Below, one piece after another: positions 39,579 through 45,141 of a stretch of DNA of 45,141 bases; position 1 is the stretch's first letter, and the number at the start of each line of letters is the position of its first letter. Position numbers and translations under genes: made by a program. Origin of the DNA: Pseudomonadota bacterium (GTDB taxonomy: Bacteria; Pseudomonadota; Alphaproteobacteria; Micavibrionales; UBA2020); the NCBI GenBank assembly GCA_021805245.1, contig JAJZFS010000037.1, positions 1 to 45,141 of the forward strand. The letters run 5' to 3'. Below the pieces are notes generated by a model, which worked only from the letters and a program-made list of their open reading frames with translations, did no database searches and had not been told where the DNA came from.

Positions 39579-39621
39579 TGAAGATGCCCGTAAATCCATA
39601 TTTACTATTTATTGAAACTCC

Positions 39622-39658
39622 GTATTCCAGTTCTCTTTTCCGTCATTTACTGGAATAC
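39622..39658. repeat. Inverted repeat before the polytopic membrane gene
   Basis: GTATTCCAGT (39622-39631) and ACTGGAATAC (39649-39658), perfect 10-base arms with a 17-base loop, 28 bases upstream of the ATG at 39687. It could be an operator or a leader hairpin. No T run follows. Confidence 0.55.
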
Positions 39659-39686
39659 TGTTCTTTGGGAGTGTCGGGGGGGCGTC

Positions 39687-40490
39687 ATGCTGATGCTGTG
39701 CTGGTTTTATTGCATTCCGCTTGCGAAGGGGGCTTTCTTCGCATCGGGGCCGTTTCTGTTCGTGCTGGCGATGTTTGCGTTGAAGCGCGGCGTGCGCCAG
39801 CAGCGCGGAACCCTGCGTCAGATTGCCTTTTTCATGATGTTCGCCGCGCTCTTGAAGATGACAACAGTGGACATCCATTTCCTGCGCGCGGACCTGCTCT
39901 GCCGTTTCAACCAGTGCCACGACGATGGATTTTTCAGGAATGTGCAGATCGCGGGTCTGGTGGCGCTTGTGGTGTTCAGTTTTCTTTTGTTCAACATGTA
40001 CCGCAGCTTTGCGCGCGACAAGCGGCAAAAGCGCATCTCGCCGCAACAGGTGCACTTGTCGATCTGGGCCAACACCGGCCTGTTGTTGGTGTTGGTGCTG
40101 ATGGGCTGGCTGGCGGCGCCGTGGGTCGGGTACCTGACCGTCGGGCATATCCCCAAGTTTTTTGTTCGTATCCCGTGGCAGCATCTCGCCGAACTGGATG
40201 TCGTCGTTTTGCTCATCGGGTTCTGGAAGCTGGAGGATTGCGTCTGGACGTATGATCCCGTGGAAAGAAAAAAGCGCGGGTTCAAGATAGACGTCTGGAC
40301 GGCGAAGGATACGCTGTGGGTGTCCGTCGTTCTGCTGGTCATCGGGCTGGGGCTTTCTTACGTGTCACACGACGTTTTGTCGATGAACACGCCGCAACAT
40401 AGCGAACATCTGCATATCAACCTCGATAAGCTGGACCAGCTTCAAGGTTTCGACCCGCCGCCCGCGACCGTTCCTCAGGTGCCGGAATAA
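39687..40490 (+). CDS. Polytopic inner-membrane protein of unknown function
   Basis: About 267 residues with roughly six hydrophobic helices. The first is at the start (MLMLCWFYCIPLAKGAFF, then ASGPFLFVLAMFAL), with further ones in AFFMMFAALLKM, IAGLVALVVFSFLLF, TGLLLVLVLMGWLAAPWV, ELDVVVLLIGFW and TLWVSVVLLVIGLGLSYVS. A periplasmic-type tail ends EHLHINLDKLDQLQGFDPPPATVPQVPE. A cysteine pair (LLCRFNQCHDDG) and HHH-free basic loops suggest no known transporter family. The in-frame TTG 25 codons upstream gives a longer N-terminus but has no ribosome-binding site. It converges with the protease-fusion gene. Confidence 0.65.
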   Translation: MLMLCWFYCIPLAKGAFFASGPFLFVLAMFALKRGVRQQRGTLRQIAFFMMFAALLKMTTVDIHFLRADLLCRFNQCHDDGFFRNVQIAGLVALVVFSFLLFNMYRSFARDKRQKRISPQQVHLSIWANTGLLLVLVLMGWLAAPWVGYLTVGHIPKFFVRIPWQHLAELDVVVLLIGFWKLEDCVWTYDPVERKKRGFKIDVWTAKDTLWVSVVLLVIGLGLSYVSHDVLSMNTPQHSEHLHINLDKLDQLQGFDPPPATVPQVPE

Positions 40491-40491
40491 T

Positions 40492-41436
40492 TTAAGCGCG
40501 GTACAGCCACCAGTTTTTGCTGTTGATGGAGAAGATCGGCTGGTAGCGGTCGACGGCCGTGACGGGCTCGACTATTTTGTTTTGGTTATCGAGCACAAAG
40601 TTGTTGTCGCCGGAGCGGACGATCAGGATGGCGTGCGAGAGAGCCTCTACCTTGTCTTCCACGACGGCGATTTTCAGCTGGTCTGTCGAAAAACCGAGGG
40701 CGCGCAGAGAGACATATTTCGCGATGGCGTAATCCTTGCAATCGCCGCCGCTGCCGAAGAACCGCGTCGCCGTCGCGTGCCAGTAGCCATAGCGGCCATA
40801 GACATGCAAATCATCGACATAAGGGATCTGGTTCAGGAATTTGTTGATGCCGTTGATTTGCGCCTGACGGGAAAGGCCGCTCAATTCCCTGATTTTTTTC
40901 TGCCACATCACGACGCCGGGCGACGTCGCGTTCGGGTTTTCCAGTTGTGCCTGAAAACTGTCAATTAGCTCCGACCATTTTTTGAAGGGCGTGATGTCGC
41001 TATGGCGCGTGGCGTGCATGCCGAACAGGTCAGGAGATTGCGGCGTGGCCGCGGCGCTGTTCGCAAACTGCATGGAGACGTTGGTGGCCTGCGTGGACGG
41101 CTCATGTGCCTGCGCCGACACGGGCATGCCGAATTGCATCATCACGGCGATCCCCGCCGCCGCGGCGCGCATGCACCATTGTTCCGTCAGCGCCCGGTAG
41201 AGCTGACCCGTCGTGAGGGCTTTCTGGCCGATGAGGATGCGTCCGAGCTGTCCGCCGGTTTTGGCTTGCGTCTCAAGGGCGTTTTGGAGCTGGCCGGCCG
41301 AGATAAGGCCACTGGCCACCAGCAGGTCGCCGAGCTTGAAGGTTTTGATATTTCTGGCAAATGACCTGAAAAAGCTGCTTCTCAGGCCCGATTGTTCGGC
41401 TGTTTTGGACTTGCGAGAAAAAGGTTTTTGCAACAT
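40492..41436 (-). CDS. MshEN-domain / transglutaminase-like (BTLCP, LapG-type) cysteine protease fusion
   Basis: A 314-residue, apparently trans-membrane protein. Residues 34-57 and 63-86 fit the two 24-residue MshEN motifs ([R]LGxxL-x10-LxxxLxxQ) and are joined by a 5-residue spacer (AKTGG), as in MshE-type cyclic-di-GMP sensors; the Arg of RLG is Lys34 and Gln63. A hydrophobic stretch (88-108, AAAAGIAVMMQFGMPVSAQA) follows, then a BTLCP domain with C233 (GDCKDYAIAKY), H268 (LSHAILIV) and D283 (VLDNQNKI). LapG has Glu after the catalytic Cys for calcium; here it is Lys234. So the sensor would be cytosolic and the protease periplasmic. Divergent from hldE; AGGGA precedes the ATG. Confidence 0.85.
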   Translation of the reverse strand: MLQKPFSRKSKTAEQSGLRSSFFRSFARNIKTFKLGDLLVASGLISAGQLQNALETQAKTGGQLGRILIGQKALTTGQLYRALTEQWCMRAAAAGIAVMMQFGMPVSAQAHEPSTQATNVSMQFANSAAATPQSPDLFGMHATRHSDITPFKKWSELIDSFQAQLENPNATSPGVVMWQKKIRELSGLSRQAQINGINKFLNQIPYVDDLHVYGRYGYWHATATRFFGSGGDCKDYAIAKYVSLRALGFSTDQLKIAVVEDKVEALSHAILIVRSGDNNFVLDNQNKIVEPVTAVDRYQPIFSINSKNWWLYRA

Positions 41437-41598: not shown

Positions 41599-43077
41599 AT
41601 GACTGAAATAAAAGAATTTTATAACAACCTAGAATCTCTTTCGGCGGCGCGTGTCCTATGCGTCGGGGATGTGATGCTAGACCAGTTCATTTATGGCACG
41701 ATCGAGCGTATTTCGCCCGAAGCACCGATTCCCGTATTATTGGTCGACCGCGAAAAGCACATGCTGGGCGGCGCCGGAAACGTGGTGGCGAATGTGGCGG
41801 CGCTGGGGGTGCATGCGGCGCTGGCGACGGTTGTCGGGACGGATGCGACGGGCGTTGAAATCAAAAACCAACTGGCGGCGCTGGGCATCGATTACGCTCT
41901 GGAAACGGAACACAGCCGTTCCACGACGCGCAAAAGCCGCTTCATCTGCGGCCCGCAGCAGGTCTTGCGCGTCGACCGCGAGAAAACCGTTCCGGTTTCC
42001 GCCGCAGTAGAGGACAAGCTTATCGAGCGCATCATGACGCTTGTGCCGCAGGCGGGGGCGATCATTTTATCCGACTACAACAAAGGTCTGCTGACCGACA
42101 GGATCGTATCCGCCGTCATCGCCTGCGCGCGCCAACATAACAAGCCAGTGATCGTCGATCCCAAGGGCAAGAATTTCGCCCGTTATCGCGGCGCGACCGT
42201 CATTACGCCCAACCGCAAGGAGCTTGAAGAGGCGACCGGCATGAAGGCGGGGACGGACGACGAGGTGCGTGCCGCCGCGTTGAAACTGATCATGGATTGC
42301 GGCGTCGATACGGTTCTGGCCACGCGCAGCAAAGACGGCATGTCGATTATCTCGGAGAAAGACGCGCCGGTGCATATTCCAGCGCAAGTGCGCGAGATTT
42401 ATGACGTTTCCGGTGCCGGCGACACCGTGGTGGCGACTTTTGCTGCGGGGCTTGCGGCCGGGTTTCCGGTCAAAAACGCCGCGCTGCTGGCCAATATCGC
42501 GGCCGGTATCGTTGTCGGCAAACCGGGCACGGCGACAGCGCGCCTTGATGAAATTCACGCCGTTCTGGCGGCACGACCGGGGCGGGAAACAATGTCTTCT
42601 GTTCAAAATGGCGCTAAATACGCATCCATAGAGGATGCCGTCACGCAGGCTGAGCGTCTGCGCACGCGCGGCAAGAAGGTCGGATTTACCAACGGTTGCT
42701 TCGATCTGCTGCATCCCGGCCATGTGTCGGTTCTGCGTCAGGCGCGCGCGGCGTGCGACTTTTTGATCGTCGCGATCAACAGCGACTCGTCTGTCAAACG
42801 TCTGAAGGGGCCATCGCGTCCGGTACAGAGCGAGACTGCCCGCGCCGATATTCTATCCGCACTGGAAATGGTCGATATGGTCATTGTTTTTGAAGACGAT
42901 ACGCCCATAGAACTTATACGGAGCATCAAACCGGATGTATTGGTCAAAGGGGGCCAGTATAAGCTTGAGGAGGTTGTCGGCTATGAAGTCGTTATGTCTT
43001 ACGGGGGTCAGATCGTCCGCGCAGAGATGGAAGAAGGTTTCAGCACAACCGACACAATTTCTAGAATCCATGCATAA
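41599..43077 (+). CDS. hldE: Bifunctional D-beta-heptose-7-phosphate kinase / 1-phosphate adenylyltransferase
   Basis: Makes ADP-heptose for the LPS inner core. 492 residues in two domains. The PfkB-type kinase part (1-~330) has VGDVMLDQFIYGTIERISPEAPIPV, GGAGNVVANVAALG and the ATP/catalytic VSGAGDTVVATFAAGLAAG. The nucleotidyltransferase part (~350-492) has VGFTNGCFDLLHPGHVSVLRQAR with the HxGH signature, and the C-terminal KGGQYKLEEVVGYEVVMSYGG. Both halves are intact, so it is the fused HldE rather than separate HldA/HldC. It implies heptose-containing LPS. The leader has only a weak purine-rich ribosome-binding site. Confidence 0.96.
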   Translation: MTEIKEFYNNLESLSAARVLCVGDVMLDQFIYGTIERISPEAPIPVLLVDREKHMLGGAGNVVANVAALGVHAALATVVGTDATGVEIKNQLAALGIDYALETEHSRSTTRKSRFICGPQQVLRVDREKTVPVSAAVEDKLIERIMTLVPQAGAIILSDYNKGLLTDRIVSAVIACARQHNKPVIVDPKGKNFARYRGATVITPNRKELEEATGMKAGTDDEVRAAALKLIMDCGVDTVLATRSKDGMSIISEKDAPVHIPAQVREIYDVSGAGDTVVATFAAGLAAGFPVKNAALLANIAAGIVVGKPGTATARLDEIHAVLAARPGRETMSSVQNGAKYASIEDAVTQAERLRTRGKKVGFTNGCFDLLHPGHVSVLRQARAACDFLIVAINSDSSVKRLKGPSRPVQSETARADILSALEMVDMVIVFEDDTPIELIRSIKPDVLVKGGQYKLEEVVGYEVVMSYGGQIVRAEMEEGFSTTDTISRIHA

Positions 43078-43205: not shown

Positions 43206-45141
43206 ATGACAGATAACCCTGTGCCCAATGGGGCAGAGAAAAATCTTTCAGCGAACGTGCCACCGCCGGCTACTGCGGATAAAAGACCGCCAGTGAACGG
43301 TGCATCGTCTGCTGCCGCAGGCGCGCCGCCGGTCAACGGTACGCCGCAGCCTGCCGCCGCGCCCAAGCCGCCAGTCAACGGCACGCCGCAGTCTGCCGCC
43401 GCAGGCGCGCCGCCGATCAATGGCGTGACACAACCTGCCGTCGCGGGCAACACACAGGTTAAGGTCGCGCCGCCGCCAGTTGCGGAAAAAGACCACTCAA
43501 GATTCGTGTCGACGCCACCTGCCGCTGCAGCGCCGTCGCCAGCAAGCGCGCCACCGCCGCCGCCTGCTGCCGCAGCACCAAAGCAGCCAGCAGCGAGCGC
43601 ACCGCCGTCGCCTGCCGCCGCTGCAGCGCCGCCGCCAGCAAGTGCGCCAACGCCGCAGCCTGTTGCCGCAGCACCAAAGCAGCCAGCAGCGAGCGCACCG
43701 CCTCCGTCCGCCGCAGAGAAAAAAACAGCAGCGAGCGCACTGCCACCACAGCCTGCCGCAGATAAAAAGCCGGTGGTCAGCGCGCCGCCACCTGCCGCAG
43801 GCGAAGAGCTTTCAATGAACGGGCCGCCGCCAAAGGCCGCTGATAAAAACCTTCCGGCTGCGCCAGGGGCTGCAGGGACAAGCCTGCCTGTCAGCGGACA
43901 GACGGCCATGGTCACGACCGATGCGACGCCCGCGCTCGCGGAAGAGATGCGGCTGGAGGAAGGCGGCGAACAGAAGAAGTCTTCAAAGCGCATCGGTGAC
44001 CGTCTGGTCGAGCAAGGGCTGATCACCATAGATCAGTTGAACGTCGCGCTGCATGAAAAGCAGAAATCCGGTAAAATGGTTGGCCAGATTCTGGTCGAGT
44101 TGGGGTTTGTTTCCGAGGCATCCATCACGGCCTTTATCGCGGAAAGTTCGGGGCAGCAGCAGTTCGATTCCAAAAAGACCATGCTGGACCCCGAGGCGCT
44201 GGCGCTGATGACGAAGAAGGATGTGCTCAAGTATCAGGCCATTCCTATCACCGTCCTCAAGGATAAAGGTGAATTCAGGGTCGCCATGGTCGACCCCTAC
44301 GACGTGCTGGCGCTCGATAAGCTGAAGCAGCTTGTGCCGCGCGGTTACGATATTGTCCCGTTCGTTTGTCCGTCGACAGTTTTTTCCGATGTGGTGCAGA
44401 GGGCGTACGGCGTCACCAGCACCATCGAAGGGATCATGAAAGAGCTGTCGGGCGACAAAACCGCAGCCAAGAAAAATATGGACAGCCTTTCGGAAGAGGA
44501 GGCCTACAGCCACCCGATCGTGCGTCTTGTCAACGCGATTGTGTTCGAGGCCGTTAAAATCGGGGCATCGGATATTCACTTCGAGCCTGAGGAAAACTCC
44601 GTGCGCGTTCGCAACCGGATAGACGGCGACCTTGTGGTGGCGCACGTTATTCACAAGGAATACTGGAACGGCATCTGCCAGCGCCTCAAAATCATGGCCG
44701 AGATGAACATCGCGGACAAGCTGTCGCCGCAGGACGGCCGCTTCGGCATGAGCATGGGCGGGCGCGAAGCCGATTTCCGCGTCTCCTGCCTGCCGACGGT
44801 GCATGGAGAAAACATCGTCCTGCGTATTCTCGACCAGAACGCCAGCATCGTGCCGGTCGAAAAGCTGGATTTCAGTGCGCACAATTCGCAGCTGATCGAG
44901 AAAATTCTGGCGCGCCCCGAAGGCATCGTCGTGGTGACCGGCCCGACCGGTTCGGGCAAGACGACGACGCTCTATTCAATGCTCAATGCGATCAATACGC
45001 CCGACGTCAATATCCAGACGTTGGAAGATCCGGTGGAATATTCCCTGAAAGGCATTCGTCAGGCGCACGTGCGCGAGGGTGGCGGCTTTACCTTCGCCGA
45101 CGGCATCAAGGCCCTGCTGCGTCAGGATCCTGACATCATCT
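43206..45141 (+). CDS. GspE/PilB-type secretion ATPase with a long Pro/Ala-rich N-terminus (3' end outside window)
   Basis: Hexameric ATPase that powers type II secretion or type IV pilus assembly. The frame is open from ATG 43206 to the edge (645 codons), so it has no stop here. Residues 1-~255 are low complexity, rich in Pro and Ala with repeats. An MshEN-like domain starts at R262 (RIGDRLVEQGLI; second motif from M291), spacer QKSGK. The ATPase part has the ASDIHFEP Asp box (454-461), Walker A GPTGSGKTTT (579-588) and LRQDPDII of Walker B at the edge. Arg finger and zinc-cysteine motifs lie beyond the window. No ribosome-binding site is strong; the upstream ATG at 43187 stops quickly. Confidence 0.93.
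   Translation, partial: MTDNPVPNGAEKNLSANVPPPATADKRPPVNGASSAAAGAPPVNGTPQPAAAPKPPVNGTPQSAAAGAPPINGVTQPAVAGNTQVKVAPPPVAEKDHSRFVSTPPAAAAPSPASAPPPPPAAAAPKQPAASAPPSPAAAAAPPPASAPTPQPVAAAPKQPAASAPPPSAAEKKTAASALPPQPAADKKPVVSAPPPAAGEELSMNGPPPKAADKNLPAAPGAAGTSLPVSGQTAMVTTDATPALAEEMRLEEGGEQKKSSKRIGDRLVEQGLITIDQLNVALHEKQKSGKMVGQILVELGFVSEASITAFIAESSGQQQFDSKKTMLDPEALALMTKKDVLKYQAIPITVLKDKGEFRVAMVDPYDVLALDKLKQLVPRGYDIVPFVCPSTVFSDVVQRAYGVTSTIEGIMKELSGDKTAAKKNMDSLSEEEAYSHPIVRLVNAIVFEAVKIGASDIHFEPEENSVRVRNRIDGDLVVAHVIHKEYWNGICQRLKIMAEMNIADKLSPQDGRFGMSMGGREADFRVSCLPTVHGENIVLRILDQNASIVPVEKLDFSAHNSQLIEKILARPEGIVVVTGPTGSGKTTTLYSMLNAINTPDVNIQTLEDPVEYSLKGIRQAHVREGGGFTFADGIKALLRQDPDII
43524..43715 (+). repeat. Tandem 96-bp in-frame repeat in the Pro/Ala-rich region
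   Basis: Two adjacent 32-codon units (43524-43619 and 43620-43715). A 35-base core, GCAGCACCAAAGCAGCCAGC plus the next 15 bases, is identical in both. The units encode APKQPAASAPP-type text. Shorter, more diverged PPVNGTPQ-type repeats lie just upstream (about 43310-43430). Confidence 0.75.

What the first reader, a model, noticed from the sequence alone, without database searches (positions are those of the whole stretch)
40492..41436. A cyclic-di-GMP-sensor-like MshEN domain fused across the membrane to a LapG-type protease
Two complete 24-residue MshEN motifs (34-57 and 63-86) with the family's exact 5-residue spacer precede a hydrophobic segment and a BTLCP domain with Cys233, His268 and Asp283. 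In known systems LapG is a separate periplasmic protease held by the c-di-GMP receptor LapD. Here sensor and protease sit in one polypeptide, which would let the cytosolic second messenger act directly on a periplasmic protease. The usual LapG calcium residue (Glu after the catalytic Cys, as I recall) is Lys, so regulation may differ. No LapA-type adhesin or LapD is in this window.
Basis: partly seen in the sequence, partly recalled or inferred. Interest (0 to 1): 0.82.

Follow-up and report, generated by a model that had tools for sequence, protein, structure and literature searches.

The report
Cyclic-di-GMP sensor before protease signal peptide
A gene conserved across one order of bacteria, apparently the order of the predator Micavibrio, joins a sensor for the signal molecule cyclic-di-GMP to a LapG-like protease that in most of these bacteria probably cuts surface adhesins off the cell; the joint looks like a removable export signal, so the sensor probably governs export or release of the protease instead of staying attached to it.

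Summary
The 314-codon gene is real: a 53-residue MshEN c-di-GMP-binding-type domain, a hydrophobic segment and a LapG-type protease with Cys233/His268/Asp283. Full-length homologues occur in 49 of 55 genomes of its order (inferred Micavibrionales); none was found in about 740 other Pseudomonadota genomes. The fusion is an order-level invention under purifying selection.

First, the segment behaves like a cleavable signal peptide, not an anchor: a small-x-Ala signal-peptidase site in 49/49 homologues, hydrophobicity below that of true anchors, and a paralogue that lost exactly the MshEN part and kept an ordinary signal peptide. Sensor and protease are probably cut apart, so c-di-GMP would act on export or processing. 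Second, LapA-like giant adhesins do exist in the order, beside LapB-type transporters, with [IV]EPAAG sites after an N-terminal beta-rich region (14 of 15 read). One appears orthologous to a Micavibrio 'hemolysin' induced on prey attachment. No LapD was found.

The window's own clade is atypical: no such adhesin found, Lys for the calcium-site Glu, and a degraded second motif. Nothing has been tested at the bench. I call it a new variant of the LapD/LapG/LapA circuit.

The parts
40492..41436 (-). MshEN / signal peptide / Peptidase_C93 fusion gene, 314 aa plus stop
   Evidence: ORF; Pfam; NCBIfam; full-length homologues in 49 of 55 genomes
41338..41436 (-). residues 1-33, basic variable N-terminal tail
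   Evidence: sequence; low pLDDT for about residues 1-20
41266..41337 (-). MshEN motif I, residues 34-57 (KLGDLLVASGLISAGQLQNALETQ)
   Evidence: passes relaxed MshEN pattern, Lys for Arg at position 1
41179..41250 (-). MshEN motif II, residues 63-86 (QLGRILIGQKALTTGQLYRALTEQ)
   Evidence: keeps L2, G3, L17, L21, Q24; lacks R1 and G10; the MshEN domain superposes on c-di-GMP-bound MshE, rmsd 0.6 A over 55 alignment columns
41107..41178 (-). residues 87-110, signal-peptide-like segment: invariant R/K90, weak hydrophobic core, A-Q-A at 108-110
   Evidence: helix 76-103 runs without break from the last MshEN helix into this segment in the AlphaFold2 model
41107..41115 (-). putative signal peptidase I site A108-Q109-A110 | H111
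   Evidence: -1 Ala in 49/49; -3 A/S/V/G in 49/49; A110 the only invariant column between Q86 and F151
41029..41106 (-). residues 111-136, variable linker
   Evidence: most of it below pLDDT 50 (segment 108-131)
40495..41028 (-). residues 137-314, LapG-type BTLCP protease domain
   Evidence: Pfam C93; LapG structures 4u65, 4fgo/p/q top Foldseek hits
40735..40740 (-). catalytic Cys233 followed by Lys234 (Glu in 44 of 49 homologues; calcium-site position)
   Evidence: DvhG D316A/E318A calcium-site mutant inactive
40633..40635 (-). His268
   Evidence: invariant
40588..40590 (-). Asp283
   Evidence: invariant
41599..43077 (+). hldE/rfaE-like bifunctional ADP-heptose gene, divergent neighbour (context only)
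   Evidence: divergent upstream neighbour in about 26 genomes; PfkB + cytidylyltransferase domains in the orthologue

Best explanation
The gene encodes a pre-protease: a LapG-type cysteine protease whose signal peptide carries an MshEN (c-di-GMP-binding-type) domain on its cytosolic end. SHOWN from sequence and comparison: the fusion, its conservation across the order, the signal-peptidase-like site, the LapG-type fold and triad, and, elsewhere in the order, giant type I-secreted adhesins with LapG-type [IV]EPAAG sites and LapB-type exporters. INFERRED: after Sec export the protease is released into the periplasm by signal peptidase I and cuts adhesins at EPA|AG, shedding them from the cell; c-di-GMP bound to MshEN acts on insertion, processing or tethering of the pre-protein and so takes the place of the LapD input. 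By the logic of known Lap systems, high c-di-GMP should hold the protease back (adhesin kept, cell attached) and low c-di-GMP should free it (adhesin shed). The last MshEN helix, which bears the ligand-contact positions L79, L83 and Q86, runs straight into the signal-peptide helix, a possible mechanical link. In the window's own clade the adhesin was not found and the calcium-site Glu and motif II have changed, so there the target and control have probably shifted.
For: Fusion full length in 49/55 genomes of the order; outside it the listed hits cover the protease only. MshEN under purifying selection, over the NCBIfam cut-off, model superposes on c-di-GMP-bound MshE at 0.6 A. Signal peptide: -1 Ala 49/49, -3 small 49/49, R/K90 49/49; 19-residue hydropathy 1.39 on average against 2.05-2.86 for six membrane segments from the same order; paralogue L117 and f6 homologue L107 lack MshEN but keep an ordinary signal peptide. 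Protease LapG-like. Adhesins: LapB-type ABC over cut-off in 47/55, T1SS C-terminal domain in 46/55, [IV]EPAAG in 14 of 15 adhesin N-termini against 1 EPAAG in 341,605 background residues, the N-terminal profile in 41/55; the LapG/DvhG consensus is [T/A/P]AAG. GGDEF proteins in all 55, convergent next to the fusion in G018, G031 and G040 and one gene further in G023. No LapD_MoxY_N hit.
Against: No experiment on any member. Cleavage is inferred from sequence; no signal-peptide predictor was available. If the pre-protein is cleaved as fast as ordinary secretory proteins, MshEN may have no time to act. Motif II has R or K at position 1 in only 11/49 and Gly at position 10 in 26/49; putting Ser back for Arg at that position abolished binding in an engineered PilF GSPII-A variant. 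The window's own genome lacks a recognisable EPAAG adhesin and has Lys for the calcium-site Glu. The direction of control is borrowed from LapD/LapG.
Confidence: 0.45

Rival explanations
1. One reading: an uncleaved type II membrane protein, with MshEN in the cytosol controlling, by allostery or clustering, a protease that stays tethered on the periplasmic face.
For: Domain order and basic N-terminal side fit N-in/C-out; helix 76-103 is continuous in the model; DvhG is a membrane-anchored LapG relative, so tethered LapG-type proteases exist.
Against: Small-x-Ala site conserved in 49/49 with no reason in an anchor; hydropathy well under that of real anchors; MshEN-less relatives carry ordinary signal peptides.
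Confidence: 0.2
2. MshEN no longer binds c-di-GMP and serves as a docking module, for example bringing the pre-protease to a pole or to a secretion or pilus platform, with constitutive release afterwards.
For: Motif II Arg and Gly often lost; XpsE shows that the fold can persist without binding, and PilF GSPII-A does not bind either.
Against: The positions making polar ligand contacts are kept: G36 and G65 invariant, Q86 invariant, Q57 in 44/49; PilF GSPII-B binds at 6 nM without Arg; a diguanylate cyclase lies next to the gene in two families.
Confidence: 0.2
3. The fused part is an inert leftover: the protease works as a plain secreted LapG/HvyA-like enzyme and the MshEN stub is degraded.
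For: MshEN can be lost (paralogue L117, family f6 L107).
Against: dN/dS 0.14-0.24 over MshEN in comparisons of the window copy with close relatives, and retention in 49 of 55 genomes.
Confidence: 0.1
4. In the window's own organism (a question separate from the others) the enzyme acts on something other than a LapA-like adhesin, like Caulobacter HvyA, which limits capsule by an unknown target.
For: No adhesin N-terminus found in 7 of 8 genomes of the genus, Lys234 in 5 of them; divergent hldE neighbour hints at the cell surface; HvyA precedent.
Against: Neighbourhood is weak evidence; MAGs are incomplete and adhesin genes assemble badly.
Confidence: 0.3

Closest known systems
LapD-LapG-LapA system (Pseudomonas fluorescens; Legionella LapG structures)
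   Same: LapG-type cysteine protease, LapB-type exporter, giant adhesin with di-alanine site near the N-terminus, c-di-GMP input.
   Different: No LapD found; the c-di-GMP-type domain is MshEN and sits on the protease's own signal peptide. NCBIfam LapG equivalog score 85.5, far under its cut-off of 320.
DvhD-DvhG-DvhA (Desulfovibrio vulgaris, PMC13090378)
   Same: A Lap-like circuit with a different c-di-GMP input; [T/A/P]AAG site; vWF-bearing adhesin.
   Different: DvhG has an uncleaved anchor and a separate HD-GYP/dCache receptor; here the sensor is encoded in the protease gene.
MshEN / GSPII domains (MshE, PilF GSPII-B)
   Same: 53-residue tandem motif with five-residue spacer; closest PDB sequence is PilF; fold superposes.
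   Different: Known fusions named in the main text of Wang et al. are with ATPase, glycosyltransferase, REC, HD-GYP, CheA/CheX, cyclase and kinase domains; no exported protease is named there. Its supplementary tables were not read.
HvyA (Caulobacter BTLCP, PMC4241560)
   Same: Alphaproteobacterial periplasmic C93 enzyme with signal sequence and C/H/D triad.
   Different: HvyA has only a signal sequence before its BTLCP domain, is controlled by cell-cycle expression and turnover, and affects capsule.

Membership tests
MshEN c-di-GMP receptor domain | two 24-residue motifs with 5-residue spacer, RLGxx..G..L...L..Q | tested here: inconclusive
   NCBIfam over cut-off over all 53 positions; spacer exact; motif I passes with Lys1; motif II fails the relaxed pattern of Wang et al. 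at positions 1 and 10
MshEN c-di-GMP receptor domain | four-helix bundle fold as in MshE | tested here: met
   AlphaFold2 model and Foldseek: 5htl rmsd 0.6 A over 55 columns, PilF GSPII-B about 1 A
MshEN c-di-GMP receptor domain | binds c-di-GMP | not testable with these tools
   needs ITC; homologous PilF GSPII-B with Lys/Leu at position 1 binds at 6 nM
BTLCP / Peptidase C93 | Cys-His-Asp triad in transglutaminase-like fold | tested here: met
   Pfam E 1.4e-17; C233, H268, D283 invariant; LapG folds top hits
LapG equivalog | NCBIfam NF045674 over cut-off | tested here: not met
   85.5 bits against a cut-off of 320
LapG-like protease | calcium-site acidic pair flanking the Cys (D-C-E) | tested here: not met
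   D-C-K in the window copy and 4 close relatives; D-C-E in 44 of 49 homologues
LapG-like protease | adhesin substrate with [T/A/P]AAG after an N-terminal retention module | tested here: inconclusive
   found in most of the order, not found in the window's genome; cleavage not tested; N-termini not modelled as retention modules
Lap system | LapD receptor with LapD_MoxY_N periplasmic domain | tested here: inconclusive
   0 of 55 genomes, but no control genome rang
Secreted protein with cleavable Sec signal peptide | basic residue, hydrophobic core, small-x-Ala | tested here: met
   R/K90 49/49, -1 Ala 49/49, -3 small 49/49; hydropathy below anchors; the MshEN-sized cytosolic extension is unusual

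The most novel reading that the evidence does not exclude
Ligand-gated export: binding of c-di-GMP to a folded receptor placed on the cytosolic end of a signal peptide decides whether the pre-protein is inserted, cleaved or held, so a second messenger directly meters the release of a periplasmic protease without a separate receptor such as LapD, and in Micavibrio-type predators thereby sets adhesin display during prey attachment.
Probability: 0.3. Interest if true: 0.87.

Novelty: new variant of a known kind. Interest (0 to 1): 0.66.

Why it matters
If right, this would be a further solution, after LapD and DvhD, to the problem of passing a cytosolic c-di-GMP signal to a periplasmic adhesin protease, and the first I know of in which a second-messenger receptor is built onto a signal peptide. 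It offers a testable account of how an order that appears to include obligate epibiotic predators could switch surface adhesion. It also suggests a new reading of a 2,892-residue Micavibrio 'hemolysin' (GMV0107, strongly induced on prey attachment) as a LapA-like, protease-releasable adhesin.

Tried and rejected
Start codon that removes residues 1-86: rejected; the MshEN part is conserved in 49 genomes and under purifying selection, and the residue at 89 is Met in only 6 of 49. Chance motif match: rejected. The retention_LapA model (NF033682) gave only sub-cut-off hits, some in FecR-domain T1SS-linked proteins of about 1,200 aa; these were not taken as LapA. The single T1SS C-terminal hit in the window's genome lies in a frame of 1,413 aa that appears to begin with an alginate lyase domain, not an adhesin. 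An order-wide operon was sought: only the divergent hldE-like neighbour is common. Papers with both MshEN and LapG: four, reviews by title, not read in full.

Full report
WHAT IS THERE. The window carries one ORF at 40492-41436 on the minus strand, 314 aa. Residues 34-86 are an MshEN-type domain (NCBIfam NF053729, 59.8 bits, cut-off 38), residues 137-314 a Peptidase_C93/BTLCP domain (Pfam E 1.4e-17) whose nearest solved relatives are LapG proteins. Catalytic C233, H268 and D283 are invariant in all homologues. The claim of two complete motifs is not: K34 replaces Arg in motif I; Q63, K72 and A73 depart from the consensus in motif II.

THE FUSION IS OLD AND CONSERVED. A search of 55 genomes from genus to order gave 49 with full-length homologues; in the other six the match is missing or partial, or, in family f6, the homologue lacks MshEN. 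One of the genomes, G052, is a single contig of 2,458,610 bases, which I recall as the size of Micavibrio aeruginosavorus EPB; it also shows the neighbourhood described for strain ARL-13 (see below), so I infer that the order is Micavibrionales. In 385 genomes drawn across the class and 398 across the phylum (about 740 distinct ones outside the order), the listed matches outside the order cover only the protease, from model position 86 on at the earliest. Substitution rates between the window copy and close relatives show purifying selection on MshEN (0.14-0.24) like that on the protease.

SIGNAL PEPTIDE, NOT ANCHOR. Between Q86 and F151 a single column, A110, is invariant. It is the -1 position of a small-x-Ala motif: -1 Ala in 49 of 49, -3 Ala/Ser/Val/Gly in 49 of 49, with R or K at position 90 in 49 of 49, 20-24 residues before the cut. 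The best 19-residue hydropathy averages 1.39 (1.28 in the window copy), against 2.05-2.86 for six membrane segments of HlyD, MotB and CHASE2 proteins of the order. In G007 a second copy (L117) keeps the same N-terminal tail, lacks 66 residues covering MshEN, and runs straight into a conventional signal peptide; other MshEN-less relatives (L107, L118, L119) also begin with ordinary signal peptides. I therefore infer that signal peptidase I frees the protease. The AlphaFold2 model (pLDDT 84) has one helix from 76 to 103, joining the ligand-contacting helix of MshEN to the signal-peptide core, and low confidence at 108-131 where the site lies.

DOES IT BIND c-di-GMP? The modelled domain superposes on c-di-GMP-bound MshE at 0.6 A over 55 columns and on PilF GSPII-B at about 1 A. 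PilF GSPII-B, the nearest PDB sequence, binds c-di-GMP at 6 nM with Lys and Leu at the first positions of its motifs, and the binding domain GSPII-C has Pro at that place in motif II; so Lys34 is no obstacle and Pro63, the commonest residue in the family, is acceptable. Gln63 and Lys72 of the window's copy are untested. G36, G65, L83 and Q86 are invariant and Q57 is kept in 44 of 49. Binding is likely in canonical members and uncertain in this one.

THE SUBSTRATE. 47 of 55 genomes have a LapB/LssB-type ABC exporter over the curated cut-off, and 46 have T1SS C-terminal targeting domains, many in open frames of 2,000-3,600 aa beside that exporter. I read the N-termini of 15 of these adhesins. 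Fourteen contain [IV]EPAAG, often twice, after an N-terminal region that reads as beta-rich and before a Gly-rich stretch; the fifteenth has IEAAAG. EPAAG occurred once in 341,605 residues of other long frames. LapG and DvhG cut between the alanines of [T/A/P]AAG following the retention module. A profile of these N-termini finds them in 41 of 55 genomes. The G052 adhesin (2,871-aa frame, vWF A domain, next to the exporter) corresponds to GMV0107 of M. aeruginosavorus ARL-13, a 2,892-aa vWF-bearing 'hemolysin-related' protein just upstream of TolC/HlyB/HlyD genes, with expression index 16.9 in the attachment phase and 0.3 in the attack phase (PMC3189940). Orthology was inferred from length, domains and neighbours, not from a sequence comparison.

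c-di-GMP CONTEXT. GGDEF proteins occur in all 55 genomes. No LapD_MoxY_N domain was found, but none of the control genomes rang either. A GGDEF gene is the immediate convergent neighbour of the fusion in G018, G031 and G040 and lies one gene further in G023, two families in all. This is suggestive, not proof.

THE WINDOW'S OWN COPY IS ATYPICAL. In its genus seven of eight genomes have no recognisable EPAAG adhesin and the eighth a fragment. Five of the eight, including this one, have Lys for the calcium-site Glu; in DvhG the double mutant of the flanking Asp and Glu is inactive. The same five have lost both Arg and Gly of motif II. Yet the gene is still under purifying selection, so it is probably being used differently instead of decaying.

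MECHANISM. The model I think most likely is that MshEN, as the cytosolic head of the pre-protease, lets c-di-GMP decide how much protease is inserted, cleaved and released; the direction (high c-di-GMP holds it back) is borrowed from LapD/LapG. Cleavage, ligand binding, and adhesin cutting are each inferred. Rivals are an uncleaved tethered enzyme, a docking module that no longer binds the nucleotide, and an inert leftover.

LIMITS. Most of the genomes are MAGs or unnamed; the taxonomic label rests on recall plus gene content. No signal-peptide predictor was available. Supplementary tables of MshEN domain architectures were not read, so a mention of such a fusion there cannot be excluded.

Noticed in passing
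window 43206-45141: A second MshEN-bearing gene, a PilB/GspE-type ATPase with a long Pro/Ala-rich N-terminal tail, lies about 2 kb from the fusion, on the far side of hldE; it runs off the window.
   Followed up: partly
L070 and L124 (G052:C1, about 99-113 kb): The largest Micavibrio 'hemolysin-related' protein (GMV0107 type) has T1SS-143 repeats, a vWF domain and a VEPAAG site near its N-terminus, and looks like a LapA-like adhesin.
   Followed up: partly
L067:1868-14097 and L069: A T1SS cluster seen in both genomes holds a LapB-type ABC, HlyD, a CHASE2 protein (nucleotide cyclase in L067), a cNMP-binding EAL protein (L067) and a FecR-domain protein of about 1,200 aa; cyclase and EAL protein suggest joint cyclic-nucleotide and c-di-GMP control of another secreted protein.
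   Followed up: no
L117 (G007:C127:23490-24125): Paralogue of the fusion with exactly the MshEN part missing, i.e. a natural domain deletion.
   Followed up: yes
L002:1021-2004 (G000:C96) and several places in G003, G004, G010: A second, more distant BTLCP family without MshEN, in clustered copies in some relatives.
   Followed up: no
window 39612-40490: A 292-aa probable membrane protein convergent with the fusion, with homologues in only a few of the neighbourhoods compared and no Pfam family over cut-off.
   Followed up: no
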